From Muricea muricata (Eukaryota > Cnidaria > Anthozoa > Malacalcyonacea > Plexauridae), in the NCBI GenBank assembly GCA_963855995.1, contig OY979730.1, positions 1,736,501 to 1,800,500 of the forward strand: a DNA stretch of 64,000 nucleotides. Direction: 5' to 3'. The notes beneath the pieces were generated by a model. The model was given only the letters and a program-made list of their open reading frames with translations, had not been told where the DNA came from and did no database searches. Made by a program: the position numbers and the translations under genes. Positions 31,108 through 63,668 of the stretch are shown here, in pieces (the stretch's first letter is position 1; every line of letters begins with the position of its first letter).

Positions 31108-31698
31108 ATATGTTAGCGTAGAATGTCTTCTCTGCTACACTGTGCCACAAACTTGATGCAAGTTGTGTTTTCTATCAGCTTGAAGCCAGTTTGCAATCAA
31201 ACTGCATCAAGTCTGTTGGCTTAGTCAAGTTGCATGAAGTAATCTAACAAATATTCTACACAAATGATTTCCAAACGAATCCTATGCTTTACCAACTATA
31301 GGGAGTCGTATTTATGTCGACAACTCTAATCATTTTGCGTCAGATAAACATCTCTTTTATTTGACTCAAATGAAAAGAGGAAAATAACAAGTTAAAAAAA
31401 AATTATTAAAATCTTTTGTAAAAAAAATTTCAATAAAGCCGGAAAGTCGGTTTGGTATTCTGTCATCTGAAAGTTTGTGGCTAGAAACATGGCGCCCGTG
31501 ACGAATCATCACGAAAGCACCTTACGCTTTTTTGACTGAGCCTGTCTCTCTTTATAGTCTCTACTCTTTGATCAGGTTTTACGATTACGATGAATTTTAA
31601 ATAATTGCGTAAGCATACAAATATTAACTTTTTTATTTCAATACGCGAGCTATATTGCACAAGCATATAATTCATGTGCCTAACTACTTAATAGCGAG

Positions 31699-31926
31699 CA
31701 GCAAGCAACGTTTTGGCCAACACGGATGCCAGCCGGAAGTAAGTGGAGCCGTTGCAGATGGCGAATGATGGCGTCGGCCGTTCTTATTTGAGATCACGAA
31801 CGTAAAAGTTGATTAACTGTCGTTTGTTGATGTCAAACGAGAATGACTGACGCCATCATTGGTCATCTATAACATTCCCATTTACTTCCGGCTAGCTTCC
31901 GTGTTGACCAAAACGTCGCTTGTTGC
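31699..31926. mobile_element. Palindromic MITE-like element
   Basis: Left arm AGCAAGCAACGTTTTGGCCA, then ACGG...CCGGAAGTAA, pairs with a right arm reading TTACTTCCGGCTAGCTTCCG then TTGACCAAAACG. Inner arms pair at ATGATGGCGTC/GACGCCATCAT. No transposase is encoded and no clear target duplication was found. Confidence 0.6.
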
Positions 31927-32421
31927 GAAGAGAATTTCCAAAAGGTTTTACTGCTCGTATTTCTTAAAACATTTTAGATTTCACAGTCCAAATACTACCA
32001 CTGTTTTAATTATTTGTATTGTTAATTATGGAATGGATGAGTTCCATTGAGATCATTCAATGTCACTCGCTGATGGGGGCGTACGTTGTCTTCAAACTGC
32101 TAGTGCCTCGGATGCAGAGTATTTTAATGGTATCACGGAAAGCAATATTATACGAGGTCTTACGATATCTGCGCATGCCACTTTTAAGCAAGTTTTCGCG
32201 TGCAAAACCGCAAACAAATTTTGCGATTGGCCAAGTTTGTTAGTGGGCGTGTGTGAGTGGGAACAGGTAAAGAGCAGATCTCGTGCAGGCTGTACAGTCG
32301 CCCCAAGAGCCTCCACGTAGGCTACAATGTTTACCATTTGGTTGGTTTCGTTGCAACCATCATTGGCTGCCACCAAAACCACAGTCATCCCAGCATATTG
32401 TTATCGTGTATAATATCTTAA

Positions 32422-32736
32422 GGCTGGCAACTCTTTCACCATTTTAAACTGACTTATGTTAGACTTTCGCTTCAAAACAAAAAAAAATAACAAAATTTAC
32501 TGCAACAAAAACTAGATAAAAATGACCTAGAATATCTCTTCTACATTTCTAGATAGTTTTTAGACAAAAACAAGATTCGAAAATACTTAAATTTGTTCAA
32601 AAACTATATAGAAATGTAGAAGAGATAACCAAGCTAGATCATTTGTGTTTGGCAGTAAATTGTGTTAATTTTTTGTGTTAGTTTGAAGCGAAACTCTAAC
32701 TTGTGTCAGTTTAATATGGTAAAAGAGTTGCCAGCC
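32422..32736. mobile_element. Palindromic TTAA-type MITE
   Basis: The ends are GGCTGGCAACTCTTTCACCA and its near-perfect reverse complement, next to TTAA on the left (32418-32421) and TTAG on the right. Almost the whole 315 bases can fold back on itself (for example TTCTACATTTCTAGATAG against CTATATAGAAATGTAGAA). Confidence 0.7.
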
Positions 32737-32918
32737 TTAGGACATTAAATAATATGATAATGATATGCAATGACGTAACGTGTGCCAGGGTGCCGGTGCC
32801 AACACAAGCGAATCCTTTGTTGTGATTTCTCACGCAGCAGGTGTCTCCCTGGACACCGATGCAGATTTGCTGCACAAAAAATCTGTTTCATATCTGAGAT
32901 ACATTTCATGATGCGAAA

Positions 32919-33650
32919 ATGAAAGCCCACATACTACCTTTCTTCTTGGCTCTATCGGTAAGTTTAACCATGTTTGACATATTTAGTTTCACGTATCCTT
33001 CACTAAATAGCTGAAGTTTAGACGATAAGCGCTAGCATTGATCCTTGGGTAGACACAAAGATTTTGGCTGGTTATTCGACTACCCAAACAATTCCACTGA
33101 TTTTCAGACGAAAAGCCTTGTGCATTTTTTGTCTTAGTACGAGACTACCATGAGCGACATGTCTACGCGATTGCGATGGCCTGCTCGTTACAAGTCGTTA
33201 GCGACTTGTCGAGAACATGGTGGAAACTTCGGTAAGGTTAGCTCCTTCGATTGAACAGATAGCAGATGTGTTTTACCGTTAAGCGCATTGTGAGAACAGG
33301 TTATAGGACTCATTACAGACTTGAATAAATGTGAACAAACACTGCGACATGTGGACGTTTGCGCCCTTTTTCCCCAATATGCATAATAATCCTCGTACAT
33401 TTTTAATCGTATTAAAATGACTGGCCAATAAATTAACAAATGCGGTAACTAGCTACATGCAGCGAAGGGAATTTTTACACAAACTAACTTAAAATCAGAA
33501 TGCTTCGTGTACGCTAAGTTCGCCAAACGTCTTCAAGGAGAACCGTATAAAGTAAATAATCCAAGTGTATATCGAGGAAAAATGTTATTTTAAAATGAAT
33601 ATTTTTTTATTTTTGGCAGGATTTGCTCTCCCTGTCTGGCCAAGCAAAAG
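32919..33650 (+). other. Receptor exons 1-2: split signal peptide
   Basis: 32919-32957 ([13 protein letters not shown], phase 0) joins 33620-33650 ([10 protein letters not shown], phase 1). Splitting the signal peptide over two tiny exons matches the design of many secreted metazoan proteins. The start was chosen because it is the only nearby ATG that produces a hydrophobic leader with a good donor. Confidence 0.6.
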
Positions 33651-36600
33651 GTAAATATAACTGATATATTAGTTGTTTTCAGTGTTACTACAGCAACTAT
33701 TTTTTGTTTTCCATTTCACCTGCATGGCTTAATTACAGGTTCGTTCAATGTTGACGCGATTTCGTCTTCTTCGGCATGCAAAGTCATACAAGAAACGGAA
33801 GTACATATGTGAAAGCTGCATCAATTTCTAATAGCATATCTTGCCCATGTACTATTTAACACACGAGAAGCGTTCAATCATATTTAAGACACAAGGCGCA
33901 ACCGAGTGTTTCAAATATGATAAAACGCGATCGTTCGAGTGCATTAAATAAATACGTCGCATTGTAATGCAACATTAGCATGCAACATGTAAAGAGTACT
34001 AATGAACGTTACAGATTATATAGCGTGTCATCCTAATTAGCACTTTGTCAAGTATAAAGCCACCTCATAAGACCTATTATGGTTGACATGATTTGCCAAT
34101 AATCAACCGTTTCGCCAATAATCAAACGTTTCTTTTATGATAATAAGGAATTATTAATAGTATTTAAATTGTTATTAGAAAACTTGTGATTTATAGGACC
34201 AGTTTAGCCAGCATTTATGAACTAATCTTCACATGTCATGAAGTACGATTTTTGTTTAACATCTGATTAACCTTTCCTCGTGTTGCACATTGCTTGTTCC
34301 CCATACTAAAATATCATCCATTATGACTTCCACGCCCACGCCATCGAGGCCTTCAAGCAGTCGTTTCATATGTTTCTGAAAGACTTCCATTTCGGGGTAA
34401 ATATACAAACCTAAAATGATCAGGCCTTGTTGTTGGACTTTTGAAACAAAAGTCATCATTGTTTGTGATTCGTTCGTTAGAAAGCTAATTTCTGTAGTGC
34501 ATTGCCTTTCATTGTTATAACCAACCACTCACAAAGCCTGCTGGTATGGGCTGGTGGCGACCCTCACATATATTGCCAATCCACTCCTCTTTCCGATATA
34601 CCATTACACGGTGGAAAATTATGCCTCTGTAACAGGTACTTGAAAAAAGAATGCGGTAAATATAATGCTGTTTGGCCAGGTATTGGACAATATTGATGCG
34701 CCGTAATCTACTCCTAATCAGAGTTATAACAATGCTGAACAATATTGTTGATAACTAGGAGCTATGTTGCCCCAACAACATTGTTGCTTCCTGTTTTTAA
34801 CAGGATCTGACTTTTCGCTTTGTATAATGCTACCAGTTTGCGGATTTTAAAGTGGCCGCGTTGTTGTCCTAAATCGTAACTTTGTTATTTTTCGTCATAG
34901 TCCGACCGTTAGGCATAAAAAGCAAGCAAATCTTGGATTCACAAATGCGTGCTTCAAGTGAAGTACATCACTGGAGGGCGTACGATGCTAGAAAAGATGG
35001 GCAAAGGGCCTGGGTGCCATCTGTGCTTGACAATGCGTGGATTCAGGTTGATTTTCTGACTGTAGTTAGAGTAAAAAAAATACTGACCCAAGGAAGACCA
35101 GATCGCGACCATTGGGTTGAAAGATATTATGTATCCTACGTGGGTGACGGTAGTGATTTTCAGAATGTAACAGACAGTGATGGGAAATTAAAGGTAATAT
35201 ATGGTATGCTTCCAGGTATTTCTAAGAAGTGCGATGCACAAAAGTCTTCTATGAACAATCTACAATAAAAAGTGGCTCGAAAATAACATGGGTTTAAACA
35301 ATTATTGGAATATATTTAATATGGGTTTGAACAATTATTGGAATATATTTAATATGGGTTTAAACAATTATTGGAATATATTTAATATGGGTTTGAACAA
35401 TTATTAGAATATATTTAATATGGGTTTAAACAATTATTGGAATATATTTAATATAGGTTTAAACAATTATTGGAATATATGACTATCCGATGAATGACGC
35501 AATTCATCTTTTGGACAGCCGAGCTCGTAACGGTTTCAAGCATGCTCCAAGCATTTTATAGTTTTCCACATATTACTCCATTTCTTTGCAAGCATGAAAT
35601 GACATACCAATACATTTGAAGGTATACATTCTGACAATTTCCAAACGTTTCTTTCATGATTAACAGGAATTTACGGGCAATGTAGACCGCAACAGTCCTG
35701 TTGAAAATTCCTTCGCCACCTCACTTCTGAGTCGCTTGCTTCGTATTCATCTCCTGGCATATCATATCCAACCCGCCCTCAGGCTGGAAGTATATGGCTC
35801 GCACGAAGGTAATAGCTAATATAGAAACAATAGTATCACCACAAAATAGAAAATAAACAAAAGGGCAACTCGAATCGGAACCTTTGAAGTGAGAGTTAGT
35901 TACCGAGAACGAGGTCTCCTAGCGAGGTACAACTCCGAGGCGTGTCTCGAAGAAAGCATTAACTATTAAATTTTAATCGCCTTCTAAATTTTAATTGTAC
36001 TAAGCAAGACAAGGTATGCTTTTAGACATTCCTGTGGGATAAGCACGATGCTAGCTAGGATAATGAAATTTTTAAAATGGAAAAACTTGAATCGATATAC
36101 TTTTTAATTTTAGGAAACCTTGTCGATATACTTTTTAATTTTAGGAGACCGGAAAGTCCATAAGACAAATTTTCTTTTTTTGCGCTTGTGCTTGCGTCTT
36201 AGCAATGACGTGATCAAGAATTAGAGCTATAAAGGCTACGTGCATGAAACTTACAACAACGCAACAGAATAGTCCAAACTTTTATTAATTCACGACCGCG
36301 CTATAGTTGTTGTAATATTATATATTACAACAGAATAGTTCTAAGAATACGTTTCCTAGTCTAAACTGGGTGGACTTGGAAAAATCACACTATTCACACA
36401 TATAATACTAGAAGAAAAAATTATCTGCATCTACCGAAACCAAAGCTTAGTCTAGGCAAAAGAACTTTCAGATTCTCTGGGACATTTTTTTACAATGCAC
36501 TTCCGAGCAGAACAAAGAATGCTACAAGTTTGTCAAATTTTAAGCATCGTATCAAAAATCATTGTTTCTAGGCTAGTATGTAATTGTATTCCATATGTAA

Positions 36601-39600
36601 TAGTTTTTAAAATAAAGTTTTCTATCTCTCTATCCCTCAAGCTGGTATAATAGCTTTGAAGTCCTATAACCATTCAGTCTTTATAATGATGTCATATGAT
36701 TCTGATTGTTAATTTAAAAACGAGTGACAACTTTCATCTTACTAACAAATAGACCAGATGCATATGGCAACACAAGCTATATAAAAGTGGAGCCACGTTA
36801 TGAATTTAAGTGAGACGTCTGTATGCCTTCATTCTGTGACAATCTTAGTAATAGTCTCATTCTTTTCTTTTCAGCATGCTTTCATGCAAAATACCTTGGA
36901 GTATCAAACCATGAAATAATATCAGACAGTCAAATGTTTGCAGGCACAGATTTAAGACCGAACTTTATCGCTCGATCTGGTCGATTGAACTTTAGTGAAG
37001 CATGGGCAGCAGAATCAAATGAACACGTGGATCACTGGCTCGGTGTTGATTTCCTCAATTTTGTGAAAATTTCTAGTATTTTAACACAAGGATTACGTCG
37101 TTCTACTACTGATTATTGGACGAAGTCATACAAAGTTTCCTCGTCAACTGATGGAATCAACTACGAATTCTACAAGGAGTTGGGCAATGTATGTTAAAAT
37201 AAATATTCGAAAAATTTTCAAAATAATAGACACTCTATACTTTATAATCTAGACCAACATTTCGAAGAAATACAACAGTTGCGCGGTCTTACAGGGAGCG
37301 GGGACGCACATTCATAATTTCGTTTAAAATCGATTCTTTTTCTGGTCTATGCGACCACGATTTCTGCGCAATCTTCAAAAAAGTTGTCGGAAGAATAGGG
37401 TAAACCGAGCAAAAAAAATAAGTGGGTTAAGAACCACCAGCCTGAAATATATTGTCCTGTGAAGTTTGCGAACTTTCTATACGTTTGTATTACGTCGAAA
37501 TATGCTATCACTTTTTCGCGCGTAACACAAAAGTGTACAAAATTCGCAAACTTCACAGAGCAATATTTTACACATTTTACAATATTCTACGACCAAACTT
37601 CAAAACTTTAGTACCAGTTATATAGGAATCACGTCAACTTGAATTCAAAATTAACTGCCGTATTCCTCAAAATTACGACAGTTAATTTCTCTACAGTGCC
37701 AGATTAACATGAATCTAGTTTTTCATATCTCTGAGAATGGTTCAGAAATAAAAAACCCTTCATGGCAGTGAAATCAGTGTAATGACGAGTGCAGATATTA
37801 CTTCGTAAGACAGAAACTTTAAACAAAAAATACAAGTGAAAATGATTACGAATCTACAGAAAACATCGATATAATAATATGTTTGTTAACGTTAGTTGAA
37901 ACGCTGATTGAAAAGTAATAATTTTGATAGCCGAGGAGTATTAATTAGGCATTGCCATACAGCCATATTGGTATCAATGACCAGGTAAAATTAGCTTGGA
38001 TATCCTTCTATGGATGTGCCCACGACATTTCCACGTTGTTCCGTCGTTCAGAAGTTCGGTAATTAGGGGGCCCATATTCATATATTCGGATTCTGCCTCA
38101 TTAATGTTCATGTATGCAAACCGTAAAACAATCAATTTTAAAAATAAATTGATTTTCTACGGTTTTTATATAGAGATTACTGCATGGTTGGCGAGTGCGT
38201 ACGATTTTTATGCACGAGTTGTGAAAGATTTTTAAAAGATTTTTAGGGGGAAGAATGTCTCCTTTTAACCTTTGTATTCTCTGTGCTGAAGGTACGTCAT
38301 ATTTTTAGCGGCCATGTGAATGGCCCACTTGAGCAACAAATGCTTTACATTTCTATTATCGGATGTACAATCTTCGTTTTTTTTGCGTTTTAAGGCGAAA
38401 GCTTGGTAAAAATCAGTTTTTTAACAAAAACTACGTCCATTCATTCGTTGAGTGGGGCCATTCAACATGGTTGCAGCTCTCAAATTATGACATATTTCCG
38501 GCTTCAATTTTTATTTCGAATTACAATGCACTATCCAGTCTTTATACATATCAATGTTATCATCTAATACAGAAATTATATTTTACTAGGTAAAGAACTT
38601 TTCCGGAAATTCCGACGCCAATACTGTTGTGGAAAATTATTTTTCTTCAGTTATTTTTGCGCGATTTGTTCGCGTACATGCACTCTCATCAAAGGGAATG
38701 ACTAAAATGCGGGTTGACTATAAAGGATGTCAGTCTATGGGTGAGTAAATCCTTAAGGCCGAAACACATGAGGCGAAAAATCGCTGCAACACGTTGCCAC
38801 AACAAATCGCTTCATATGTACAGTCAAGCGACAAGTCATATGCGCTCATTTAAGCGATAGGCTGCAGTTAACAATAGTTCTCATTGGTTAATAATATTTT
38901 GTCGCCGCGACAGAATTTTTGATTTTGTGCGACATGTTGCAGCGACAAAAATTCTGTCACGGCAACAAATTTTCGATAAAATTCTACTGTTTACACAATG
39001 AAATTTGTGGCTGCGACTCGCAACTAAAAGTATCAGCCTGCATATTTCAGGCAGAACTCAGCTGTGTTCGTAGGAGTCCATGCAGTTAACCACTCGGCAT
39101 ATCAATATTATTATAAATAATAACAACAAGAAATATTCTTTGCTCATTTGAAACAGCTTTTGAAATAACTAACAAAACATGTTACAGATTTTCATATCTT
39201 GTTTCATTCGTGAGATATTTCGGCTCAAACACACCAGGTGTCTGCCATCTTGGATTTTGGAAGATAAGCTTTTTCTATTTTTCTATTTTTCAATTTTTCA
39301 ATTTTTCAATTTTTATGTTTTTTCAATTCACAAGTAAGATCACACTTTGAGTAAAAGCATTTTAGCGTTCTATTGTTTGTCCTTACTTTATTACGGGCAA
39401 TTATTCAAGTCTTATTCCACTTGTGACGCCATGTAACGAGTTCAAGAATTTATCCAAGATGGCGGAAGCTCGTATGTTTCAATCAAAATATCTCAAAAAA
39501 CAAGCAAGGTATGTAAAAGCTGTAACAGGCTTTGTTTTGAAAGGTCTTCCACATGAGCAAAGATTTTTTTTGGTAACCAAAAGTGAGTCCTATCAAGATG

Positions 39601-42600
39601 TCAACAGACTTGCTGCAATTGTTGCGTTCTTAATTTTGACTGATGCGAAGGATGCAGCTCAACATTTTCCACCATTTTTAATATTCTATTATATAATACC
39701 TCATTAAATTTTGGTCGTTTAATTGGTTGATTATGGTCACGTGATATGAAATAAAAAGTTCTATTTTCGAAGAGTGCAATGGAAAACGTTCCATTGCACT
39801 CCTAGGAGTGCAATAGTATTTTCCATTGCACTCTCACAATTCCCATCCGTCAAAAAGCTCTTCGTACGGTCTTCGTAGTTTACTTTAGGCTGGTTTCGGT
39901 CTTGAGATGAATGCGAAATAATCCAAATACTAAAATAGGACTCAAATGCGTGTTGTTTTGAAAAACAATAGTCTGGTATTATATAAAACAAATAATGAAT
40001 ATTTTTAGTCGTGCAATAGTAAGAATATTTTCATTCGGTGACAGTCATTGTGTAACAATAGAACGGTAAAAATAGTTGAGGAGGTTGAGCAACGTCCTTT
40101 GCAATTCAGCTCAGCTCTTAGCATGAAAAAGATGAATGGCATAAAATCCCTTGTCCCTAACCCTACCCATAGCCACATTACTTCACTAACACACCACAAA
40201 TGTCCTCCAGAGATTAACGGAGGACGACTTACGAGCTAGGGTACATTACCTTTTAGAAAGCCGAACTGCGTGTGTCGATCCTGTACCTCTTGGTATGAGG
40301 GATCGTGTTATTCTCGACAGGCAATTAAGTGCATCGTCTTCAAAACAGACAGGTCAACCTAAGAATGGCAGATGCGGTTTTAATAAAACATCTAACGAAG
40401 ACGGGGGATGGATGTCCGCTTCATGGGATGAAGAACCATGGTTTATGGTCGACTTTCTGTCTAACGTTACACTCACTGACATTCAATTGGATAAACCGGA
40501 TATGGATCCGGACAATTATGTTGTAAAGTATGAAATCGATTATGGCAGCGATGGCGTCGCGTTTGAGCGCTATGAAGATGCGAATAATAAGGTGATGTAG
40601 AGATGTAAAGAAACTCATGTTCCGAAGAGAAGTCTGTCTAAAAAATTCATTGTTAAAGAAATGTTTACCTGGATTTCTGCCCTTAGAAATGTACTTTCTT
40701 TTAAAAAGTTGTTTATCGTCTAAAGAAAACAAAATGGCTTTTAACTACCGTTTACCCAGGGTTAAATGAAGCGTTAAATGATCAGGAGGTACTGAAATAA
40801 GTTATGTAAAATATTTAGTGTAAAATATTTCATGATTTCATGTAAAATATCTAACAATTAGATTACGGGCTCGAGATTTCTATGCAGTGATAGTTGACGA
40901 GGGCGAATCCCGAATCAGCTATCATCTAATAGAAATCGAGAGCGAGTAATCTAATTGTTTTAGTAGAATCTGAGAACCAACATGAAAGATTCAACAAAAC
41001 AATTGATATTTTAAAGCAATCCTTTAAAAAGAAATCTCTACGAAGATGATGATTTCGCTATTCGCTATCTATCGAGGAATTAATACTGACAGCAAGTAGA
41101 GTAGCCAATCAAATTACAGCATTTGCAATAGTATACTAGTATGATTCTACTAAATCTTTTTATTGATCAATAATATTGAAATCATTTTAACTTTGGTTGT
41201 TTTGTTTTGTTGTCTCACCTAAGGATCATTTTACGTTTCGTTTTGGTCACAAATGGACAATTTCGTCAATGAAAACGAGCCAAATGGCTTGGTTCAAGCC
41301 AAACAAGCTAAAACGGTAGTCTTAGGTTGATGATCATTCCTGTTTTTAACATTTGAGATTAGATCTACTAAGGTGCTAACTTTGATCTAGTGTTTTTACA
41401 TTTAATAGAACGCCATTTTACGTGGTTTGAAGAGATTTTATCCACCAATACTTGCTCGGTTTGTTCGAGTTCACATGACAACGTGCAAGGGCACATGTGG
41501 CATGAGAGCGGAATTTTACGGATGTCACCAAGGTGCGAAAACATTCTCCTCTTCCACATCGATATGCATCCAGACGAGATATTGTATTGTAACTAGGTAA
41601 TCTGAAAATACGGAAACGTACTGGCACTAGTTGTCAAATAGAAATCCATTTTTCGAGCCAAACTAGCAAATTTCTCATTAAGTATAATTTACTTCGGTTC
41701 CAAATTTCTGGTGGACTTATAACTTCCTTACTGAACATAACTTTCCAAACTGAAACCGTTAAATATTTTATATATAGGATCAGCTTCCTTTTAAAACGTA
41801 AACGTTTGTCTTACAACGAAAACTTTTCATCTTGCACTAAAAATCTGTATAGCACTCCCAGCTCAAGCGGGGTGAACGCACGTGGTGTTGTTGAAAACCA
41901 CACCCATTTTCTTTTGTTCTTAATCGGTTTTGGTTTTGTGAGTAAGACCAGATTCTAAAAGTTTGGTGGCGGTATTTGAATATTTTCAGGGGATCCGGAA
42001 AGCGGGGCTGAAAATTCAAAACCCGGTTCGGGTCTTGAACGCAAATTCAAAACCCGGGTCAAGTCTTGAATTTTAATTCAAAACTCGTTTGTTTACGAAT
42101 TAAAATGTGGTATTAGCGGAGTATAAAAATATCCATAAAATGTCAAGACGCAGGCAACACAACAAACGTTTACTCAAAATAAACATAACAAACACACGAG
42201 CACAGCAACTTTTAAATTATTGAATTGACATTAAAACTAATATTTACGTTTATTGACTTATCACCACTGATCCTTTGGGGTGAACTTTGATCTACGTCTT
42301 TTTTAATTTCCACACAGTTTTTGTCTGGAGTTTCACATCGTTCTTGTTCCTTAATTTTCTTAGACTTAGTTGCATTCACACCATACAAAATATCAGACAC
42401 TTGAACTTCTTGTTCACTTGAAGCTCTCTTGTATGCTCTCATAGCAATGCAACAGCACACTTATCCTTGTACCTTGTTGATTTTGGCACACAATCATCTA
42501 TCTTTGCTCGAACTTCAGTCTCTGATACTGGAGCCGCAAAGCGATCGAAACCAGTTGCACTTGGCTGCTCTTCGACTTCGTTTATATCGCCAGCTGACGC

Positions 42601-54600: not shown

Positions 54601-57600
54601 AAAACATTTTCCTGTTCACATTGTTTCAGATATCGACGCTTGCCAGTCTCAACCTTGCCAACATGGTTCAACATGTCACGAGTATTTTGATGTGTACAAT
54701 ACATTCAATTGCACATGCGCAGACGGTTACACGGGAGAGCGATGCGAAATAGGTAAGTAGTATAAAAATACTAACAACCTGACGAAGTCCTTATACATTG
54801 AATTTGAATAGTGTTTTGTGATACTATTTGAATAGTGGAAGAATCTATATTTTCTTGCGCAACTATAAAAAAAGCTTACAAATAATCTGATCAAGTCAAA
54901 CTGCATGGATATTTAAATTATTCATTTAATAATTTCCTTGTATGATTGCACGGTGAATATCAAATTAAAATCTAATTTTGTGGAAACACCACGTAAGTTT
55001 ATTATCGCAGAGCTTTCGATCCGTAAGCTCGGATCTTCATCAGTGCTAATTATAATGCGACTAATTTAATTATAATATAACAATAGAGTTGACGTTCGCG
55101 GGCATAAATATGTTTTTGGCCCGACTCAGAATCATTTTAGCCCGAGCGTAGCGAGGGTTAAAATGAGCTCTGAGGAGGGCCAAAAACATATTTATGCCCA
55201 AGAACATCAACTCTATTACTATTATAATAACTTTAAAGCCCTTTTCACGTTTAACTTTAACTTTGTTTTTCAAAAAAACAACTACACTTAAATCCTTAAA
55301 TGGCTTCCGACTATTTATACATTGGCTATTACGTCAGCGGGCTAAAATGTATTTTAGCCCGCTGATTTGTTTATTTTAGCCCGCAAAATACGTCACAATG
55401 CTCGCTAAAGTTATTATAATGGTGCTTCTTGTTTAGACATTGATGATTGTTTGTCGTACCCTTGCCAACATGGAGGATCATGTAGTGATTCTGTGAACGC
55501 TATTACTTGCACGTGCATAAATGAATATCGAGGCGAACTGTGCGAGATAGGTATGGGACAAAAATTCTGCGTTTACTACGATGTTTTAACTGGTGTTATG
55601 TTGACCTCGATATGTCAAGTGATCTTCTGAAGATTTGTATTGGTTTTATTTTGATTTCTCCAGACCTTCTTTAAAGGATTACTTTTGTATCGCAGGCCTT
55701 TGTTATTGTCTACATTCTATTTCATTTGTCGAAAATGTGAGAATAATGCAAAAAAATAAAAGACTTGTAAAGGATTGATTTGTTTTAAGGCGGATTATAA
55801 ATTATTTTATCATGATATCCCATACAAAATGGCCGGCAACGGTAAATTGAGCCCGCAATACTATGAAATTACTACTAAAACAACCATCCCAGGAAAAATT
55901 CTACTGCCAATGTTCGCAAATATTTTCTGCACAACTGGGAGCGCTGCAAATTTTTCACAAGTGATATCCCCCCTTTTTTGTTTCCAGATCCTTTACCGTG
56001 TTACTCGGAACCATGTGAAAACAATGCAACTTGCAACAGCACAGACGGTGGATTCAACTGCACATGCGCACTCGGTTACTATGGTGATTTGTGCAGTGAA
56101 CGAGATCATTGTATTCCAAACCCTTGCCTTAACAACGCGACATGCAGTCGTAACAGCACTGACTTCAAGTGCAGCTGTAGTGATGGTTACTATGGTGACG
56201 TTTGTGATCTAAGGGACTGGTGTTACCCGGAACCTTGCATGCACAATGGTGTTTGCAGCTTCAACGAGACGGCGTATCACTGTGCTTGTGAGAGGACTTA
56301 TACCGGAAGGCAATGCGAAACAGGTAGAATAATTGGATTTTCCCTCGTAGATAATATGATGCAACTTGATACTTGGCAACTTAATCTTTCTTGCTACTTT
56401 TGAGCTGTTCAACTCTTAATAGTTCTAGCTTAGAAGTATTAGAAGCTGTGGAAGAGTCTAAAATTGCCCCAAACGTGCCCATATCCACGACTGATATCAT
56501 TAATCCTCGAATTTTTTACTTTTCGAATGTATTCCGCTCGAATTTATTCCAACGTGATTGTCACATAAATTCAAATGTCAATAGACAATTTGCGCAATAG
56601 ACTAAAGGTCGAACTAAGCAGGAAGAAAGAAATCTTTTACTACAATTGAAAAGAGCATCTTAAAATTAGTAGGATTGCAAAGTTTGGTGGCGAAATGTTG
56701 TAAAATACGGAAAATATAGGCCTGCGAAATTTGCAAATTTTGTATATATTCGTATTGCGCGCGGAAAAAGTCACCATTTTTGAGCTAAAATTGCCGCGAA
56801 AATAGTAATTACTCGCGCGTAATACAAATATATACAAAATTTGCAAACTTCGCAAGGCTAAATTTTCCGTATTTTACAACATTTCGCCACCAAACTCTGC
56901 AATACTACAAATCTTAGGATCCTCTTTCTAGCTGTAGCAAAAGATTTTTCTTTATGCCTAGATCAAACGTTAGTGTATTACGCAAATTGTCTATTGGTTT
57001 GACAATGACTTTGAAATGCCCGTTTCCCACTTCAACCGTATCGTAGCGAAACGCAGCGTATTCTCTTATCGTAAATCACTTGTTCTGCCTGAGTGTTCAC
57101 AAAATAATGAAATACGCTGCGTTTCGCAACGATTAAAGTCGAAACTGCGTTTCGCTTACATTTGTTCGAAACAAAAATTCAAACAGAATTCATTTGAAAG
57201 TTTGTATAAGCTGTTCTTTATGACATGTGCAAACAATTTTCCACTATATGAATCTATATATTTTGTAAAACATAAATTGGTAGCATATCGTTCATTTTTA
57301 GAAAACCACCTTCCGATTACTGATCTAGTCATGCAACCGATTCCTGCACATGAATTTGGCAAGAACATTTCAATTAAATGGAGCGTTTCAGAAGGAACAT
57401 ACCTGATCGTAGAAGCATTGTATAATACTATTCCATGTTGCAATTCAAGCGTAGGTCACGTCAAACAAGGCACCTGCATTTGTGCTATTTCGGACCCAGA
57501 CCTCTACGATCCAGACGGCGTGGTCGAGATCACGGTGATAGCACGGAACCTCGTGTCCAGTCCAAACACCACTCTCGAGGTCGAAGTCCTCAAAAAGATC

Positions 57601-60600
57601 CAAAATGTATCGATCACAATGCATTCAGACTTTGGGATTGGGCCCGAAGGAAATATATTTCCAGCGGAATATGCAGTAAAATTCGACGCCGCATACTTGG
57701 ACGGTACACCTACTTCCAGTCAGTGGACAATTAATTGTACTGAATCCGGTACAAGTTTTGAGTCAGCGTTAACTTTCGAAAAAATTTGGACAACGACCGC
57801 TCAAGATTGTGATATACTTGTGGCACTTCGAAACAGTATAAGCCAAGCTACGGCGCGTAGCTCTGTTGTTTTAAAAGAAAGCGTAATTTTGAACAGTCTG
57901 ACAAGCAACAGCCCAATGAAATTAAACCGATCGATGACGTTCGTAATTTCGTTGCAAAAGCTCGGCACGCAAACCTGTTTATGGCTCGATTTGGGAGACA
58001 ACAGTTCTCTTGTTGTTTTTGGTTACCACTCTTGTCCTAGCACAATCAATGTTGATCAAATCAACCCAAATATCGTAATTGAACCTCGACTTAAGTTCAC
58101 CCACAAATATCCCGACTCTCAGGAGATAGTTATCGATCATGTTTATCCCCGCGTTGGCTCTTATGACGTCAGGTTATACGCGTCCAATGATGTCTCTATG
58201 GTTACAGAACAATTAGTGGTTGAAGTGCTTGCCTTAGAATGCAGAAATCCTAATGTGTCAATCTTAGGTATGTGGCGTCATTTATTTTATGACTCCCTAA
58301 ACGTATCGAGAAAGTTAAGGTTTTGTCTGGGTTTTATTCTGCAATTAGAAATCGTAGTTGGTGTCCCGTAACAAACTATTAAAGAAACATTCAAAGTTGC
58401 TTTCTATAAAGCGGTGGTTTCAATGTCTCTTCCCGGCGCGTAACTTTTGCATTCCTTTCTTAGGTTTAACGCCAAACTCTTCCAACGTTTTGAACGCAGT
58501 TCAAGTTCATCGTTCAGTTGAGATCATGTTGACAAATGAACAAGCGATTGACTGCGAAATCACTGACCAAACGACCTCATCTTGGACAGTATACAAGCTT
58601 GAGGATGATCCCCGCGACCCAATTCCTCTTACAGGATTAAGAAAAAGCCTGTTTCATACGGAGATTTCTACCTCGGATCTATTAATACCGGGAAGATTTC
58701 TACCCTACGGATTCTACGAGATTGTTGCCCGCGTCGAGATGAGGGGTTTACGAGGCGTGTTCGGTACTGCTTCAACGCATATTCAAGTCATTCAAACTCC
58801 GTGGCTAGAAGCTGCTGTCATTGCAGGCTCATTTCACACAGTACCATACGGATTTCAGGTACATATAGTAATACAGTATTTCATCACTGGTTCTCTATAT
58901 GTAGTCTATCATTTATTAACCATTAAATAGCCACCTAAACTCTGAGCAAATTACACACCCCTTTTAATTTTTGATGCAACGGTCAGAATAAGCGAGTACC
59001 ATGTCCCTAGCTCTGTGACGATGGCTTCGGTCCATGGCGCTAAGAAGGTTTAACTATACGATCATCTCCATTGTTAATACAAGGGATTAGGATAAGGCCC
59101 TAAATTTGAGAGTAAATGCCCACCTGATATGAGCACGTTTTGTGATTAGCTTTCTAAGACGATAATGATCCGTGTTTGTGATTCGTTCTCTAAAAATGTA
59201 TTTTCTATAGTTTCATTGCATTTTATTGTTTTGATGAAACGATCAAAGCAGCACTTCGTATAGGTTGGTGGCGACCAAATTTGATGGTAGCTGTGCTCTA
59301 CAAGACATACGAGTACGAGGTGTTCTTAGACTCGATCGGGTTGAGCTGCGTCCTTAGTGATCCAGGTAAAGATGGTTAACACACTAAAATTACTTTCTTT
59401 ATTACTTTTAGGGGTCAATCAACGCATCTGTATCGATAGATCCTGATTTCGTCGACCTTGATGGAATGACATTCGCTTGGTTTTGCAGAAACGTCAATGA
59501 TAGTGAATTTTTGCTCTCAAATCTCAACGTCGAATCCTTGATTACTATTCCTGATGGGAACGACACCAGTTTTGATCCTGCCCAGGGTGTAAGACTTGTT
59601 TATTTTCTACTAGACTCCGTGCACCAAAAAAATATTTCCTTAATTCCATCCATTGGTCACTAGTGAACCATAAATGAGTAATTAAAAGCTTCGTATAGAA
59701 AATACAGCCCCTGAATACTGCAAGCAAAGAAAAACATTTTGAACGTACTCATTGATAAATCTATTAACCGGAAGATGTCTTATTTTCTTTGCAATTTACA
59801 TTGACAACGACCGTTGTTAATCAGTGCTACTTTTTCGCAGTTTGGTGGCTGTTTCGACACTGGTCGGGGTCGCTTGAATTCCACTGACCTCATTCTACGG
59901 CTGGACACTAGAACCATGACAGAAGATGAGACGTGAGTCGATCGTTTATACAACTTTTACTCAGAGTAGACTCACTTTTTGCTCTAGTCGGATCTTTCTG
60001 CAGGGCACTGAAACAACAGAAAATACCTATTTTTCTACTGTTATCTATTTATCTGTTATCTTAATGTCTGTTATAGTTACGCTATTTCTCTGGTTATCGC
60101 TACGGAAAACCAAGAGTTTGGACCAAGACAAGACATCGTGAACATTTTCTTCTACGTTGCACGAGGTTTACCGCCAGCACTCTCGACCAGGTACAGACGA
60201 TGAAGATAAATGCTCTTAGTATTAAAACAGCAATAAATGACTTTCCAACACCTTTCATGCCACACTACGGTACACTTCAAAGCTTTTTTTTCCAAAGACG
60301 TGATATGCTCCATCAAAACAGACTTAGGGAGAACACGAACTGAAAGAAAGAATAATTCTTAACTTAAGAAGGATCGGAACTATATGTTTCTTAACAACAG
60401 AACCTACGTTTCAAGGCTTTGTTCGTTATACTTGTTAGGTTGCTTGCACTTGTATGTTAGTTTTTCAATTAGAGACGTTCATTTCTTTCCCAAACTTAGT
60501 TGTTCAAAGAACTGCCGGGAGAAGGTGATTCCAGATGAAAAGATCATTCTGAAGTCAAAATGCAGCGCTTACTGTTATGGCGAACTCAGCTTTAGTTGGT

Positions 60601-63600
60601 CGCTATATATGTACGATGACCCTAACATGCCCGAACCATTTAACTTGACAGACCTGAACGCATTCTCTGCAGAGGAATTTCAGAATATAGCATCAAGTCC
60701 TATCAATCAGATAGATATTGCTATCAAACCGAACTCCCTTGAGAAGGATAGGAAGTATATTGTAGCTTTTCGAGCAACACGACCCAGTGGTGTTTATGGC
60801 GAACTGAGGTATACAATGTTGATGAACTCTCCACCAAGCCTAGGTAAGCGAAAATTGAACATTATTGCAGCATTGTCTTTATCCCTACCACTAGCATAAT
60901 TTTTATAATGATTTCCATAACCTTCGCCATTATTATCACTCTACACCGTAACATCGACCGTAACCTCCATCATCATGATTTCGATAACTATAACCTCTAC
61001 CATCATAATTTCGATAATCATAACCTGCACCATCATTAATTCAATAATCATAAACTCCACCATCATTATTGTCATGATCATAACCTCCACCGTCATTATT
61101 TCGATAATCATAACCTCCACCATCATTATCTCGATGATCATAACCTCCACCATCATTATTTCCATGATCATAACCTCCACCATCATCATTTCGATAATCA
61201 TAACCTCCACCATTATTATCTCGATGATTATAACCTCCACCATCATTATCTCGATAATCATAACCTCCACCATTATTATCTCGATGACTATTACCTCCAC
61301 CATCCTTATCTCGATAATTATAACCTACATTATCATTATTTCGATGATCATAATCTCCATCATCATTATTTCAAAGATCATAACCTCCACCATCATTATT
61401 TCGATAATCATAACATCCATCATCATTATTTCCATGATCATAATCTCCATTATCACTTTATGATGATCATAACTTCCATTATCACTATTTATGATGATCA
61501 TAATCACTGCTATCACTTTTGTGATCATAACCTCCACCATCATTACTACTACTATATTATCGTAACAACCTATGAGGTAAAATCCACAATTTGTGTTCTT
61601 AATCTACATTAAGGACGGTGACGTGCAAAATGGCGATTTTTAGCTCTACATTAAAGACTCGAGTAACGAGAATTTGGCAAGGGCAAGAAAAGCTTTAGCT
61701 TGTATTTGAGAAAAGTTTGCGAGAATAATCAACTCTTTCTTTCAGATATTCAAAATTATAGTTTGCATGTGTCGGTAACACCTGATCATAATTAGGAGAC
61801 GGTCAAAATCTAGAAAGACGGATTTACAGAGGGCCATTCGAAGTTGTGTTATGCTACTGTGTTACGCTACTGTGTTACGCTACTGATTAAAACCTCACCC
61901 ACCAACTAAATATCCCCATTTTATTTCCAAACATCCAGGTAACTGTTCGTTCTCTCCGTTATCCGGCATTGCCATGCATACAAACTTTACGCTCTCATGT
62001 GAAAACTGGATCGATCCAGATGCACCACTGTCTTATGAGTTTTCCTACCAAAGCAATGGTGTCAGATTACCCTATTTTTACACTACTGCACCTATCGGTA
62101 GAAAGGTTGTGTTTACGGATTGGCTACCTGTAGGGGATCAAAAGAATGATTTTGAATTGACGGTAACTGTCCAAGTCAAGGATAAATTTGGATCAAAGAC
62201 AAAACAAGATTACACTGTGCAGGTAAACGTACTGATAAAAAAATGATTAAAAGTTTTATTTTCATCTCAATATCACAACTAGTGTTCTTCATTAGTAAAA
62301 TATGGCATATCTCTTCAGGTTCTTCCTCCATCTGGGAAACAACTAAACATGGAGGACATGCTAAACATGGTCACAGGAGGCACAAGTCATTTTGAAATGC
62401 TTCTTGTTCAAGGCCAAGGTCAACGTGCACTTAGCCTTGCGTCATCCATGGGCACTGTTCTTGCCTACTTGTCTGAAAACCAGAAAGCAAACGCAACAAG
62501 TACAATGTATGACAAAGAGGCTTCCAAAAAGGTAATATGACTGTCAGACGATTTTTTGTACAAATTGGCTTAAAATGTTGTAACGTTGCAAACCAACTAC
62601 TGAACGAAGCAAATCTAAAAGCCATGTTTGATTAAGGCTTTCCAATACATCATGATGATTTTCTGTTTTATACAGATTAAGTTACAATTGCTGACTTCAA
62701 TATCACAAAACGACGCATCATCCGTCGATGTCTCGTCACTGGAACAAACGAGTGCGACTGTGGTATCTTTGGTTGGGAATACAGATGAGTTAACTCCTGA
62801 GACTAAGGTATTTCTGTAGTATTAGGCTATAGAATCTGCAATGGCTATTTGGCGCCTGGAATTACTGGTTTCACAACAGAGACTATAAATAACCCAAATT
62901 TTACGCTCGAGCCTACTTTTGCGTTTACATAGTACGAATATTGTTTTCATTCCTTTCTCAGGACACTGCACTTCGCATATGCGGCAAACTCACAGATAAC
63001 TTAAAGACACTATCCGATGAAGACGCTGGTTTCGTAAATGTCCAGAGAGGAGCCTCAAATCTGGTGAGAATTGTTGGAGAAATGTCTGACAGTGCAGCAA
63101 AAGATTCAACAGAGAATAGCACAGAAGCTCAAAACCACGTCCCTGTAAGTTATTGAGATCTTGCAAAAAGTTTAACGTTAAAATAATAAGTATGTATAAT
63201 AATATACGTATATAAAAATTAATAAGTCGCGTTATATATAAAGTATACGTATATAAAATAATAAGTCTCACTGAAATTATGCTCTTGATTCAAACGAAAA
63301 TAATTTAACTGTTTTCGTTTCGATTTTAGATACAAATCAAAACGTCGTTCAATTTAGTAAACAAACTTCAAACTATAATTCTGGACAATATGGTTTCTAC
63401 AGAAGGACCGGTGAACGTTGAAACAAATAAACTTTCTTTGCAAGTTGAAAAAGTGACGATTCAGGATCTTGGTCGAAAGAAGAACAGCGTGAAAAATTCA
63501 GAATTTAAACCTCCGCCGCCTGAGGCACTTGGATTGAAAGAGAGTAAGATAGCATTTGAATGCAGAAAAAAAATTCGCATAAATCCAATATTCAAATCTA

Positions 63601-63668
63601 AATTTCTTTTCACAGTTGCAAACGATCGGAACAACACATTTCTTCAAATGCAACCCACTGATATCAAG
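32919..63668 (+). CDS. Discoidin/EGF/PKD/REJ receptor, polycystin-1 type (3' partial)
   Basis: Thirty-two exons, all with matching phase, give 2,531 residues before the window ends. Order: signal peptide (1-23), six two-exon discoidin (F5/8 type C) domains (24-946), one EGF (947-984), two more discoidins (985-1298), five EGFs (1299-1489), PKD-like repeats (1490-1811), and a REJ region (1812 onward). REJ plus PKD identifies the polycystin-1/receptor-for-egg-jelly family. These proteins are large ciliary or sperm surface receptors whose C-terminus carries GAIN/GPS, PLAT and 6-11 membrane helices, expected beyond 64 kb. Discoidins bind glycans, lipids or collagen. The unbroken phase across the EGF-PKD junction (56323 to 57302, G plus AA) argues for one gene rather than two. 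Alternative: two genes, if transcripts stop after the EGF block. Confidence 0.75.
33651..34900. other. Receptor intron 2, with a Gypsy reverse-transcriptase fragment
   Basis: No exon is seen in this 1.25-kb intron. It contains the minus-strand retrotransposon fragment annotated separately. Sequence near 34440-34560 resembles 59150-59290 (GTTTGTGATTCGTTC and GGTTGGTGGCGACC-like), so part is dispersed repeat. Confidence 0.5.
34256..34400 (-). mobile_element. Ty3/Gypsy-type reverse transcriptase fragment
   Basis: The minus strand reads [18 protein letters not shown] followed by [10 protein letters not shown], a typical Ty3/Gypsy polymerase block with the catalytic MDD. Only about 45 residues are recognisable, and the frame upstream is unrelated. 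It is a degraded scrap inside an intron and cannot function. Confidence 0.75.
34901..35808 (+). other. Discoidin module I
   Basis: Exons 34901-35193 and 35667-35808. The first exon has [28 protein letters not shown] and [10 protein letters not shown]. The second has [19 protein letters not shown] and [10 protein letters not shown]. All hallmarks of an F5/8 type C domain are present. Confidence 0.85.
35285..35479. repeat. 33-bp tandem repeat in module I intron
   Basis: About six copies of a 33-base unit containing GGGTTTAAACAATTATTGGA lie in the intron between the two exons of discoidin module I. Copies differ by A/G at one position of GGGTTT(A/G)AAC. Confidence 0.9.
36875..38740 (+). other. 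Discoidin module II
   Basis: Exons 36875-37188 and 38590-38740. Motifs: [46 protein letters not shown], then [13 protein letters not shown] and [11 protein letters not shown]. The two exons keep the 1-0-1 phase pattern. Confidence 0.85.
37440..37600. repeat. Inverted repeat related to the 56.7-kb element
   Basis: TGTGAAGTTTGCGAACTTTC pairs with AAATTCGCAAACTTCACAGA across a short loop. The same style of core occurs at 56674-56903. It is intronic. Confidence 0.5.
38750..39710. repeat. Repeat-rich part of intron 6
   Basis: 38750-39000 contains several GTTGCAGCGACA / TGTCGCNGCGACA inverted units. 39265-39310 is a CTATTTTT/CAATTTTT run. The open frame at 39423-39707 has no splice context, and I do not recognise its product. 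Confidence 0.5.
39773..39832. repeat. Double palindrome of GAGTGCAATGG
   Basis: GAGTGCAATGGAAAACG is followed immediately by its mirror complement, then the pair repeats after CTAGG. The whole 60 bases therefore form two adjacent hairpins or one large cruciform. A diverged single arm occurs at 44753-44765. Confidence 0.7.
40257..41532 (+). other. Discoidin module III (diverged)
   Basis: Exons 40257-40591 and 41409-41532. It keeps [48 protein letters not shown] and [20 protein letters not shown]. It lacks the ITQG turn and the F.GN.D start of the second exon. The second exon is about 18 bases shorter than in the sister modules, so a loop is missing. Confidence 0.75.
41870..43060. mobile_element. 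Inverted-repeat-flanked element with recombinase-like fragment
   Basis: ACACCCATTTTCTTTTGTTC at about 41901 pairs with GAACAAAAGAAAATGGGTGT at about 43006. Looser pairing extends outward over CACGTGGTGTTGTT / CACGAGGTTGTTATGTTG. Between the arms lies a broken minus-strand coding fragment (42212-42744). It looks like a small DNA element carrying a truncated gene. Confidence 0.5.
42212..42744 (-). pseudogene. Possible Crypton-like recombinase N-terminal fragment
   Basis: Two overlapping minus-strand frames read [20 protein letters not shown] then [13 protein letters not shown], and after a frameshift near 42440-42460 [21 protein letters not shown]. The style (E-x-E-x-x-x-A/I, then VPK-x-T, then a basic helix) resembles the N-terminus of Crypton/DUF3504-type tyrosine recombinase relatives common in cnidarians. 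The catalytic part is absent. The family call is tentative. Confidence 0.35.
43133..43277. mobile_element. hAT MITE with perfect 8-bp target duplication
   Basis: The 145-base element starts CAGGGTTGGTAGATT and ends with AATCTACC-type pairing and CCAACCCTG. TAAATAAGCCAAA/TTTGGCTTATTTA continue the inverted repeat inward. It is flanked on both sides by TCATGAAA (43125-43132 and 43278-43285). A CAGGG tip plus an 8-bp duplication is diagnostic of hAT elements. Confidence 0.85.
43313..43482. mobile_element. Palindromic MITE with AGGCGCCC ends
   Basis: AGGCGCCC at the left pairs with GGGCGCCT at the right. Inner pairs are TACTGTGTAGTTTCA/TGAAACTAGACAGTGA and ATCAGTGC/GCACTGAT. It is 170 bases and non-coding. 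Confidence 0.65.
43944..44210. mobile_element. TTAA-GGTTGTC repeat, full copy
   Basis: GGTTGTCCTT and AAGGACAACC are perfect ends, next to TTGA (43940-43943) and TTAA (44211-44214). The body matches 10348-10565 in the GPCR gene. It is a Kolobok-like non-autonomous element in intron 8. Confidence 0.7.
44374..45779 (+). other. Discoidin module IV
   Basis: Exons 44374-44696 and 45638-45779. Motifs: [56 protein letters not shown], then [26 protein letters not shown] and [10 protein letters not shown]. Confidence 0.85.
45044..45194. mobile_element. Palindromic MITE with CTGGGGCCGGTT ends
   Basis: CTGGGGCCGGTTTTATAAA pairs with a right end reading TTTTACACAACCGGCCCCAG. Inner arms pair around TTAAATAGTGATTAA/TTAAATTTAATCAC. 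It sits in the module IV intron. Confidence 0.65.
46310..47164 (+). other. Discoidin module V
   Basis: Exons 46310-46641 and 47020-47164. Motifs: [53 protein letters not shown], then [15 protein letters not shown] and [20 protein letters not shown]. Confidence 0.85.
47165..48023. other. Receptor intron 12; nothing recognised
   Basis: The stretch is AT-rich with no exon. The segment AATTACTGGCACTAGTTG near 47220 resembles the start of the module III downstream intron (41620-41700), suggesting the introns were copied with the modules. Confidence 0.45.
48024..49546 (+). other. Discoidin module VI
   Basis: Exons 48024-48349 and 49405-49546. Motifs: LGMENGG-like [55 protein letters not shown], then [15 protein letters not shown] and [11 protein letters not shown]. 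Confidence 0.85.
50493..50606 (+). other. EGF domain 1 of the receptor
   Basis: A single phase 1-1 exon reads [19 protein letters not shown] then [13 protein letters not shown]. Six cysteines are in EGF order. It splits the discoidin array between modules VI and VII. Confidence 0.85.
50632..50875. repeat. GGTGT / ATGGT pentamer satellite
   Basis: About 100 bases of perfect GGTGT repeats are followed by about 130 bases of degenerate ATGGT/GGCAT pentamers, in the intron between EGF 1 and discoidin VII. The long open frames in both strands here are artefacts of the pentamer. Confidence 0.95.
51840..52195. repeat. ACAAGTTGT-type palindromic repeat
   Basis: Numerous ACAAGTTGT/ACAACTTGT-like units (TTGTTACAAGTTGTTAACAG, CGACAAGTTGTC, ACTTGTTACAAC) lie between outer arms TGTGCACACC.AAAAACGCA and TGCGTGTGTATTTGG. 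This is a dispersed non-coding repeat. Confidence 0.6.
52226..52397. mobile_element. Palindromic MITE, AATAGACCCCACTCTGGAGA ends
   Basis: The left end AATAGACCCCACTCTGGAGA is repeated as its exact reverse complement at the right end. Inner arms pair at AGGATGC.GACAAAT / TTTGTCAGCATCC and at GACGTCAGCA / TGCTGACGT. It sits 43 bases before the second exon of discoidin VII. Confidence 0.75.
53104..54452 (+). other. Discoidin module VIII
   Basis: Exons 53104-53438 and 54311-54452. Motifs: [55 protein letters not shown], then [15 protein letters not shown] and [10 protein letters not shown]. The spike region after TASSH is longer than in the other modules. Confidence 0.85.
53877..54061. mobile_element. 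Palindromic MITE, CTGTAATATTCC ends
   Basis: Arms of about 65 bases pair with few mismatches (CTGTAATATTCCAAACTTCG against CGAAGTTTGGAATATTACAG; TTTCAGAATTCGCAA against TTGCGAATTCTGAAA). The loop contains GATTGG. It is intronic within module VIII. Confidence 0.8.
54630..56323 (+). other. EGF domains 2-6 of the receptor
   Basis: Exons 54630-54752 ([15 protein letters not shown]), 55437-55550 ([15 protein letters not shown]) and 55988-56323. The last carries three EGF domains in a row, [24 protein letters not shown] and [12 protein letters not shown], each closed by C.C..GY.G..C. The first two begin with the IDAC/IDDC pattern of calcium-binding EGFs. All exons have phase 1-1. Confidence 0.9.
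55068..55424. repeat. Cruciform-type dispersed repeat
   Basis: It contains nested palindromes: GGGCATAAATATGTTTTTGGCC with GGCCAAAAACATATTTATGC, CAATAGAGTTGA with TCAACTCTATT, and AGCGGGCTAAAAT with ATTTTAGCCCGC. It fills most of the intron before EGF 3. Confidence 0.7.
56674..56903. mobile_element. Palindromic MITE, ATTGCAAAGTTTGGTGGCG ends
   Basis: Both ends carry GTTTGGTGGCGAAATGTTGT in opposite orientation, and pairing continues through TAAAATACGGAAAAT and TTTGCAAATTTTGTATATA. It is 230 bases, intronic and non-coding. Confidence 0.8.
57302..58267 (+). other. PKD-like repeat exon
   Basis: One 966-base exon encodes about 322 residues of PKD-like beta-sandwich repeats. The last repeat is clearest: [11 protein letters not shown], then [20 protein letters not shown], with the classical W-DFGDG-like and H.Y..G.Y.V motifs. 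Two more diverged copies precede it. The open frame extends upstream to 57016, but the acceptor at 57301 and the phase (G plus AA) place the exon start at 57302. Confidence 0.75.
58464..62222 (+). other. REJ region, exons 24-28
   Basis: Exons 58464-58858, 59412-59588, 59841-59932, 60500-60843 and 61939-62222. Motifs typical of [23 protein letters not shown] then [44 protein letters not shown] then [13 protein letters not shown]. This is the conserved core of polycystin-1 and egg-jelly receptors. All phases match, including the 59588 donor taken as GT|GTAAGA. Confidence 0.8.
60958..61560. repeat. 30-bp minisatellite in REJ intron
   Basis: About 20 copies of a 30-base unit built on CATAACCTCCACCATCATTA plus TTTCGATAAT lie between exons 60843 and 61939. 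The units are multiples of three, which creates long repetitive open frames on both strands (rich in Ile/Thr on plus, Met/Ile/Val/Glu on minus). These have no splice support. Confidence 0.95.
62319..63668 (+). other. Exons 29-32: post-REJ helical segment
   Basis: Exons 62319-62531, 62676-62807, 62962-63144 and 63330-63668. They encode a helical, Ser-rich stretch ([39 protein letters not shown]) that in polycystin relatives lies between REJ and the GAIN domain. Exon 32 contains an optional 72-base internal intron (63544-63615). The donor GTAACG at 63669 shows that the gene continues. Confidence 0.7.

What the first reader, a model, noticed from the sequence alone, without database searches (positions are those of the whole stretch)
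32919..63668. Polycystin-1/REJ receptor carrying eight discoidin domains and six EGF domains
Seen: 32 exons in unbroken phase joining signal peptide, discoidins, EGFs, PKD-like repeats and REJ. Known: vertebrate polycystin-1 uses LRR, WSC, lectin and PKD repeats, and sea urchin REJ proteins use lectin and EGF modules. A large discoidin array in front of a REJ core is not an arrangement I know. Inference: an adhesive sensor, perhaps for gamete, symbiont or matrix glycans, coupled to a polycystin cleavage/channel module.
Basis: partly seen in the sequence, partly recalled or inferred. Interest (0 to 1): 0.75.

Follow-up and report, generated by a model that had tools for sequence, protein, structure and literature searches.

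The report
Discoidin-fronted REJ (polycystin-type) surface receptor
An animal gene appears to join eight discoidin adhesion domains and six EGF domains to the stalk of a polycystin-type sensor; both halves are well known, this pairing was not found in the papers searched, and the membrane end of the protein lies outside the sequence at hand.

Summary
My splice model (34 exons, 32919-63668, 2545 aa, no stops) gives Pfam F5/8 type C x8 (E 1.6e-153), EGF x6, PKD, and a nearly complete REJ domain (E 8.7e-61, profile 8-450 of 452). Order: weak signal peptide, D1-D6, EGF1, D7-D8, EGF2-6, PKD, REJ, pre-GPS segment, window end. An automatic exon chain scores 405 against at most 18.4 in 20 shuffles.

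That both halves are one gene is likely, not proven. The 978-bp EGF6-REJ intron joins phase 1 to phase 1, holds no hydrophobic start exon, and the open frame before the REJ exon scores as non-coding.

"Polycystin-1" is not shown: GPS, PLAT and channel would lie beyond 64 kb. LRR, WSC and C-type lectin were not found. Species unknown; no relatives reachable.

Best reading: a REJ/PKD1-family adhesion sensor with discoidins in place of the usual lectin-type head. Ten paper searches found no REJ-plus-discoidin protein, but the library is partial and eukaryote sequence databases were not searchable. New variant of a known kind.

The parts
32919..32957 (+). possible signal-peptide exon ([13 protein letters not shown]); uncertain
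   Evidence: donor score 8.9; one of 2 hydrophobic ATG exons found in 30400-34900 and the only one whose phase fits; coding score -0.22 per codon
33620..33650 (+). possible 31-nt second exon, phase 0 to 1; uncertain
   Evidence: acceptor 13.1, donor 8.0
34901..35808 (+). discoidin D1: exons 34901-35193 and 35667-35808; lacks both terminal Cys
36875..38740 (+). discoidin D2: exons 36875-37188 and 38590-38740
40257..41532 (+). discoidin D3: exons 40257-40591 and 41409-41532 (second exon 6 codons shorter than most)
44374..45779 (+). discoidin D4: exons 44374-44696 and 45638-45779; lacks both terminal Cys
46310..47164 (+). discoidin D5: exons 46310-46641 and 47020-47164
48024..49546 (+). discoidin D6: exons 48024-48349 and 49405-49546
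50493..50606 (+). EGF1, one phase 1-1 exon
50927..52582 (+). discoidin D7: exons 50927-51249 and 52441-52582; best-scoring Pfam stretch
   Evidence: PDB relatives factor VIII/V C domains, neuropilins
53104..54452 (+). discoidin D8: exons 53104-53438 and 54311-54452
54630..54752 (+). EGF2, one phase 1-1 exon
55437..55550 (+). EGF3, one phase 1-1 exon
55988..56323 (+). EGF4-EGF6 in one phase 1-1 exon
56324..57301 (+). 978-bp intron at the critical EGF-REJ junction; holds a 418-bp palindromic repeat at 56579-56996
   Evidence: donor 5.2, acceptor 5.9; repeat; no start exon, one poly(A) hexamer
57302..58267 (+). PKD repeat exon (one clear, one weaker PKD stretch)
58464..62222 (+). REJ domain exons 58464-58858, 59412-59588, 59841-59932, 60077-60190, 60500-60843, 61939-62222 (REJ match aa 1842-2321 runs into the next exon)
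   Evidence: Pfam REJ E 8.7e-61, profile 8-450 of 452
62319..63668 (+). end of REJ and post-REJ/pre-GPS segment: exons 62319-62531, 62676-62807, 62962-63144, 63330-63543, 63616-63668; gene runs on past the window
   Evidence: aa 2281-2545 has no Pfam match even at E 10; last donor score 7.4

Best explanation
One gene encodes the extracellular part of a REJ/PKD1-family surface receptor in which the usual lectin/LRR/WSC head is replaced by an array of eight discoidin and six EGF domains. Shown: domain order, phase-compatible exons, no stops, nearly complete REJ. Inferred: the protein is secreted through a signal peptide, continues past 64 kb into GAIN/GPS and membrane segments, and works as an adhesion sensor. 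In that model the discoidins hold extracellular or neighbouring-cell ligands at many points, the EGF/PKD/REJ stalk carries the load, and pull or ligand binding acts on a GPS-cleaved polycystin-type membrane module to open a channel or signal to G proteins.
For: Pfam 8 discoidin, 6 EGF, PKD, REJ on a 34-exon, stop-free model; chain score far above shuffles. One gene: EGF6 exon ends in phase 1 and the PKD exon begins in phase 1 with donor/acceptor scores within the model's range; no ATG exon with a hydrophobic stretch in the 978-bp gap, although a separate extracellular PKD/REJ protein would need a signal peptide; the open frame 56974-57301 before the PKD exon scores -0.09 per codon against +0.12 for the exon, so the exon looks internal. 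The discoidin side needs a downstream partner as no good terminal exon is seen, only a 26-codon read-through to a stop. Mechanism by analogy: a soluble N-terminal PC-1 fragment activates the PC-1/PC-2 channel (PMC7728438, abstract); the PC1 membrane-proximal region comprises FNIII-like fold and GAIN with GPS cleavage (PMC9672506, passages); Nematostella polycystin 1 is a hair-cell-specific effector gene (PMC8846589, passages).
Against: No transcript. Phase 1-1 joining is common in extracellular modules and fits by chance about one time in three. The 26-codon read-through after EGF6 scores mildly coding (+0.10), which a terminal exon would also show. No GPS, PLAT or TM in the window. Signal peptide weak. 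My gene finder assumed one gene and did not weigh one against two. No relative from another species was reachable.
Confidence: 0.72

Rival explanations
1. Two neighbouring genes: a secreted discoidin-EGF matrix protein ending just after EGF6, and a separate REJ/PKD1-type receptor beginning near 57 kb.
For: Read-through after EGF6 reaches a stop after 26 codons and scores +0.10; the gap holds a poly(A) hexamer at 57132 and a 418-bp repeat; discoidin-EGF proteins are ordinary (recalled). Published cnidarian REJ proteins carry WSC-PKD-REJ without discoidins (PMC4890752, PMC8846589; passages).
Against: No hydrophobic start exon in the gap; upstream frame of the PKD exon non-coding; one poly(A) hexamer in 978 bp is below the density of most of the model's longer introns; phases fit.
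Confidence: 0.2
2. One gene, but not a polycystin channel: a discoidin-EGF-PKD-REJ ectodomain on one or two membrane spans, or secreted, working as a matrix or gamete-recognition protein.
For: The window ends before any membrane segment. Some sea urchin REJ proteins lack the large TM region and have one or two TM (PMC1934368, passages).
Against: The exon chain runs on past the REJ with a good donor at the end (7.4) into a pre-GPS-like stretch (judged by eye; no Pfam match).
Confidence: 0.25
3. Pseudogene or assembly chimera.
For: Many transposon pieces and tandem repeats lie in the introns.
Against: No stop or frame break in 2545 codons over 34 exons; coding score positive in 33 of 34 exons; window has no N bases.
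Confidence: 0.05

Closest known systems
Cnidarian REJ/PKD1 proteins: coral skeletal-matrix REJ protein (aug_v2a.02830) and Nematostella polycystin 1-like
   Same: PKD repeats followed by REJ
   Different: These carry WSC in front, with GPS/PLAT and TM behind (PMC4890752; PMC8846589; passages). Here no WSC was found and eight discoidins plus six EGFs stand in front; membrane part not in the window.
Sea urchin SpREJ1-10 and human PKD1, PKD1L1-3, PKDREJ
   Same: REJ core; sugar-binding or other modules at the N-terminus, one EGF in SpREJ1
   Different: Heads are C-type lectin, SUEL, WSC or EGF; the words discoidin, coagulation and FA58C do not occur in the main text of PMC1934368.
Discoidin proteins: coagulation factors V/VIII, neuropilins, lactadherin, DDR2, retinoschisin
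   Same: Discoidin fold family; factor VIII C domains are the best PDB match to D7 and D8
   Different: None of the PDB matches listed is a REJ protein. By eye the hydrophobic spike loop of factor VIII C2 falls in a gap or polar stretch of D7, so factor-VIII-like membrane insertion is not indicated.
Notch/Delta-type EGF arrays
   Same: EGF2-EGF3 match Notch1 and Delta-like 1 in PDB
   Different: Generic module similarity only.

Membership tests
REJ/PKD1 family | REJ domain (PF02010) | tested here: met
   E 8.7e-61, 206.3 bits against cut-off 25, profile 8-450 of 452
REJ/PKD1 family | PKD repeat(s) in front of REJ | tested here: met
   PF00801 40 bits against cut-off 23.5, one stretch; two at relaxed E
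REJ/PKD1 family | GAIN/GPS autoproteolysis site | not testable with these tools
   would lie past 64 kb; aa 2281-2545 gives no Pfam match at E up to 10
Polycystin-1 proper | PLAT domain and 11 TM with channel-like end | not testable with these tools
   beyond the window; no whole genome held
Polycystin-1 proper (vertebrate type) | N-terminal LRR, WSC, C-type lectin | tested here: not met
   none among the 11 Pfam families at E up to 1 in the modelled protein
Discoidin (F5/8 type C) proteins | F5/8 type C domain with terminal Cys pair | tested here: met
   8 stretches, E 1.6e-153; Cys pair in 6 of 8
Discoidin proteins of the factor V/VIII membrane-binding type | hydrophobic membrane-insertion spikes | tested here: inconclusive
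   by eye on one PDB alignment (D7) and the eight-domain alignment; spike residues recalled
Extracellular receptor | signal peptide | tested here: inconclusive
   weak candidate at 32919 only; no dedicated predictor on hand

The most novel reading that the evidence does not exclude
A distinct class of polycystin-type mechano/chemosensors in which discoidin arrays, not lectins, are the ligand-holding head, made by fusing two gene types that act together: in Nematostella a 'coagulation factor/neuropilin-like' gene and polycystin 1 are two of only three POU-IV-activated genes found in the hair-cell metacell and no other (PMC8846589, passages). The fusion would then name the extracellular partner of cnidarian polycystin 1.
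Probability: 0.12. Interest if true: 0.75.

Novelty: new variant of a known kind. Interest (0 to 1): 0.45.

Why it matters
What polycystin-1-type receptors hold on to outside the cell is poorly known. A natural version with eight discoidins in place of lectin/LRR/WSC modules would say that the head is exchangeable while the REJ stalk is kept, and would give a protein whose ligands can be sought with recombinant discoidin domains. If the gene is one unit it also points to discoidin proteins as candidate partners of polycystin 1 in animals where they are separate genes.

Tried and rejected
Tried without result: whole-genome search (no genome held); REJ relatives in viral contigs and genome contigs (21 and 46 stretches matched a pattern, none a relative); PDB sequence search with the PKD-REJ region (0 hits at E up to 1); AlphaFold of the PKD exon alone (mean pLDDT 35, not used for any fold search). 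First gene-finder run with a weak exon penalty gave 93-100 exons, most of them spurious, and was dropped for stricter runs and hand curation of nine boundaries or so by phase, splice score and Cys.

Considered and rejected: a signal-peptide exon at 33595 ([18 protein letters not shown]), because it leaves phase 2 and D1 needs phase 1, and its hydrophobic letters come from the pyrimidine tract of a strong acceptor. A D3/D5 module duplication read from a shared 135-bp intron stretch (81% over 129 aligned bases; 74%): flanking intron and exons are far less alike, so it may be two copies of a dispersed repeat; left open. Recent amplification of the discoidin array: the eight are only 27-39% identical. 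Factor-VIII-like membrane insertion: not indicated, by eye only.
Full report
Observation. The curated model has 34 exons from 32919 to 63668, 2545 codons, no stop. Pfam finds eight F5/8 type C stretches (E 1.6e-153), six EGF stretches (E 2.7e-26), one PKD (E 4.1e-10) and REJ (E 8.7e-61, profile positions 8-450 of 452). Two PKD stretches appear at a relaxed threshold on the PKD exon alone.

Architecture. D1-D6 (34901-49546), EGF1 (50493-50606), D7-D8 (50927-54452), EGF2, EGF3 and an exon with EGF4-6 (54630-56323), PKD (57302-58267), REJ (58464 to about 62.4 kb), then a post-REJ stretch to 63668, where the window runs out in an intron. Each discoidin is a pair of exons that enters in phase 1, splits in phase 0 and leaves in phase 1; each EGF exon is phase 1-1. 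The domains are 27-39% identical to one another, mean 32%, so the array is old. Six of eight have both terminal cysteines; D1 and D4 lack both; none has one alone.

Chance. With the same scoring, the best chain on the real region (31 exons) scores 405; 20 dinucleotide shuffles give 8.5-18.4 and the minus strand 32. The codon table comes from this gene, so the margin is inflated, but the Pfam scores do not depend on it.

One gene or two. For one gene: phases fit at 56323/57302, with donor 5.2 and acceptor 5.9, inside the range of the model's other sites. A scan for ATG exons with a hydrophobic stretch and a usable donor finds none between EGF6 and the PKD exon, and two in 30400-34900, of which only 32919 fits in phase. 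The open frame running 110 codons up from the PKD exon scores -0.09 per codon, against +0.12 in the exon. The intron's length is partly a 418-bp palindromic repeat. Against: the 26-codon read-through after EGF6 scores +0.10, there is a poly(A) hexamer at 57132, phase 1-1 fits by chance about one time in three, and my programme assumed one gene.

Upstream limit. The neighbour upstream is a TMEM232-like gene with its last match near 29.9 kb (automatic exons to about 30.5 kb). The discoidin gene therefore begins between about 30.5 and 34.9 kb. The signal-peptide exon is the weakest part: coding score -0.22 per codon, the only negative one of 34.

What it is. REJ with PKD repeats in front places the 3' half in the REJ/PKD1 family by sequence. 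Whether it is a polycystin with GPS, PLAT and channel helices cannot be tested in this window; the stretch aa 2281-2545 gives no Pfam match even at E 10, and that it resembles the start of a GAIN domain is my judgement by eye. LRR, WSC and C-type lectin are not among the families matched. D8 and D7 match factor VIII C domains best in PDB, then factor V, neuropilins, lactadherin, retinoschisin and DDR2; the PKD-REJ region has no PDB relative by sequence.

Mechanism. Inferred: an adhesion sensor. Eight discoidins give a multivalent grip on an unknown ligand; EGF, PKD and REJ make a load-bearing stalk (a force-spectroscopy study of the REJ module, PMC3677617, was seen only in the search listing); the membrane part would be GPS-cleaved. 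In human PC-1 a soluble N-terminal fragment is reported to activate the PC-1/PC-2 channel (PMC7728438, abstract), and PC1's membrane-proximal part is described as FNIII-like fold plus GAIN (PMC9672506, passages). The ligand is not known; the hydrophobic spike of factor VIII C2 is not evident in D7.

Literature. Ten searches of the held library were used; several listed only part of their hits. 'REJ domain' with 'discoidin' gave 0 papers; 'polycystin', 'REJ' and 'discoidin' gave 3, which by title and abstract start are two on extracellular vesicles and one cell proteomics study (listing only); 'REJ domain' with 'coagulation factor' gave 2, read in passages, with the two as separate proteins. 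The coral REJ protein has WSC, PKD, REJ, GPS and PLAT (PMC4890752, passages). The Nematostella polycystin 1 has PKD, REJ, WSC, PLAT, TOP and 11 TM (PMC8846589, passages). Sea urchin REJ proteins carry C-type lectin, EGF, SUEL or WSC (PMC1934368, passages). A cnidarian matrisome study has FA58C with Polydom proteins and no occurrence of polycystin or REJ (PMC12549020, passages). Two hints of co-use: in Nematostella a coagulation factor/neuropilin-like gene and polycystin 1 are among three POU-IV-activated genes exclusive to the presumptive hair-cell metacell; in Aurelia planulae a REJ-domain and a coagulation-factor-5/8-domain transcript are both among the most abundant (PMC4334923, passages). 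Neither shows a fusion. Acropora REJ homologues are reported among the most diverged genes between two sister species (PMC11577847, passages). Automatic annotation in eukaryote databases may well already list such a protein; I could not check.

Verdict. A real, well-supported domain array; most likely one gene; a REJ/PKD1-family ectodomain with an unusual head. New variant of a known kind; interest 0.45.

Noticed in passing
12284-15737 (+): An adhesion GPCR gene: GPS (E 3.5e-13) and 7tm_2 (E 4.2e-43) matches, with a sub-threshold GAIN match; part of its last 7TM exon is repeated at 17155-17492 (81% to 14925-15262).
   Followed up: partly
17865-24551 (+): Gene with a DUF4795 match (E 8.5e-15 on 21159-21410), as in QRICH2 (that name recalled).
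   Followed up: partly
27657-30502 (+): TMEM232-like gene (27.4 bits against cut-off 27 on 29747-29941), directly upstream of the discoidin-REJ gene.
   Followed up: partly
4316-6274 (-): Open frame of 653 codons with a Mutator-like transposase match (E 2.1e-80).
   Followed up: no
56579-56996; also 32411-32747, 53877-54061, 31698-31926, 55069-55228, 37443-37572: Palindromic, MITE-like repeats in introns and flanks; the one at 56579-56996 sits in the critical EGF-REJ intron.
   Followed up: partly
41604-41738 and 47209-47342: 135-bp stretch shared by the introns after D3 and D5, more alike (81% over 129 aligned bases) than the neighbouring exons (49-59%): module-duplication footprint or dispersed repeat.
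   Followed up: partly
10740-11830; 50626-50858; 60961-61545: Large tandem arrays (135-bp; 5-15-bp; 30-bp units); the last two lie in introns of this gene.
   Followed up: no
34256-34528 (-): Frame that looks by eye like a retrotransposon reverse transcriptase piece (motif recalled, no search made).
   Followed up: no
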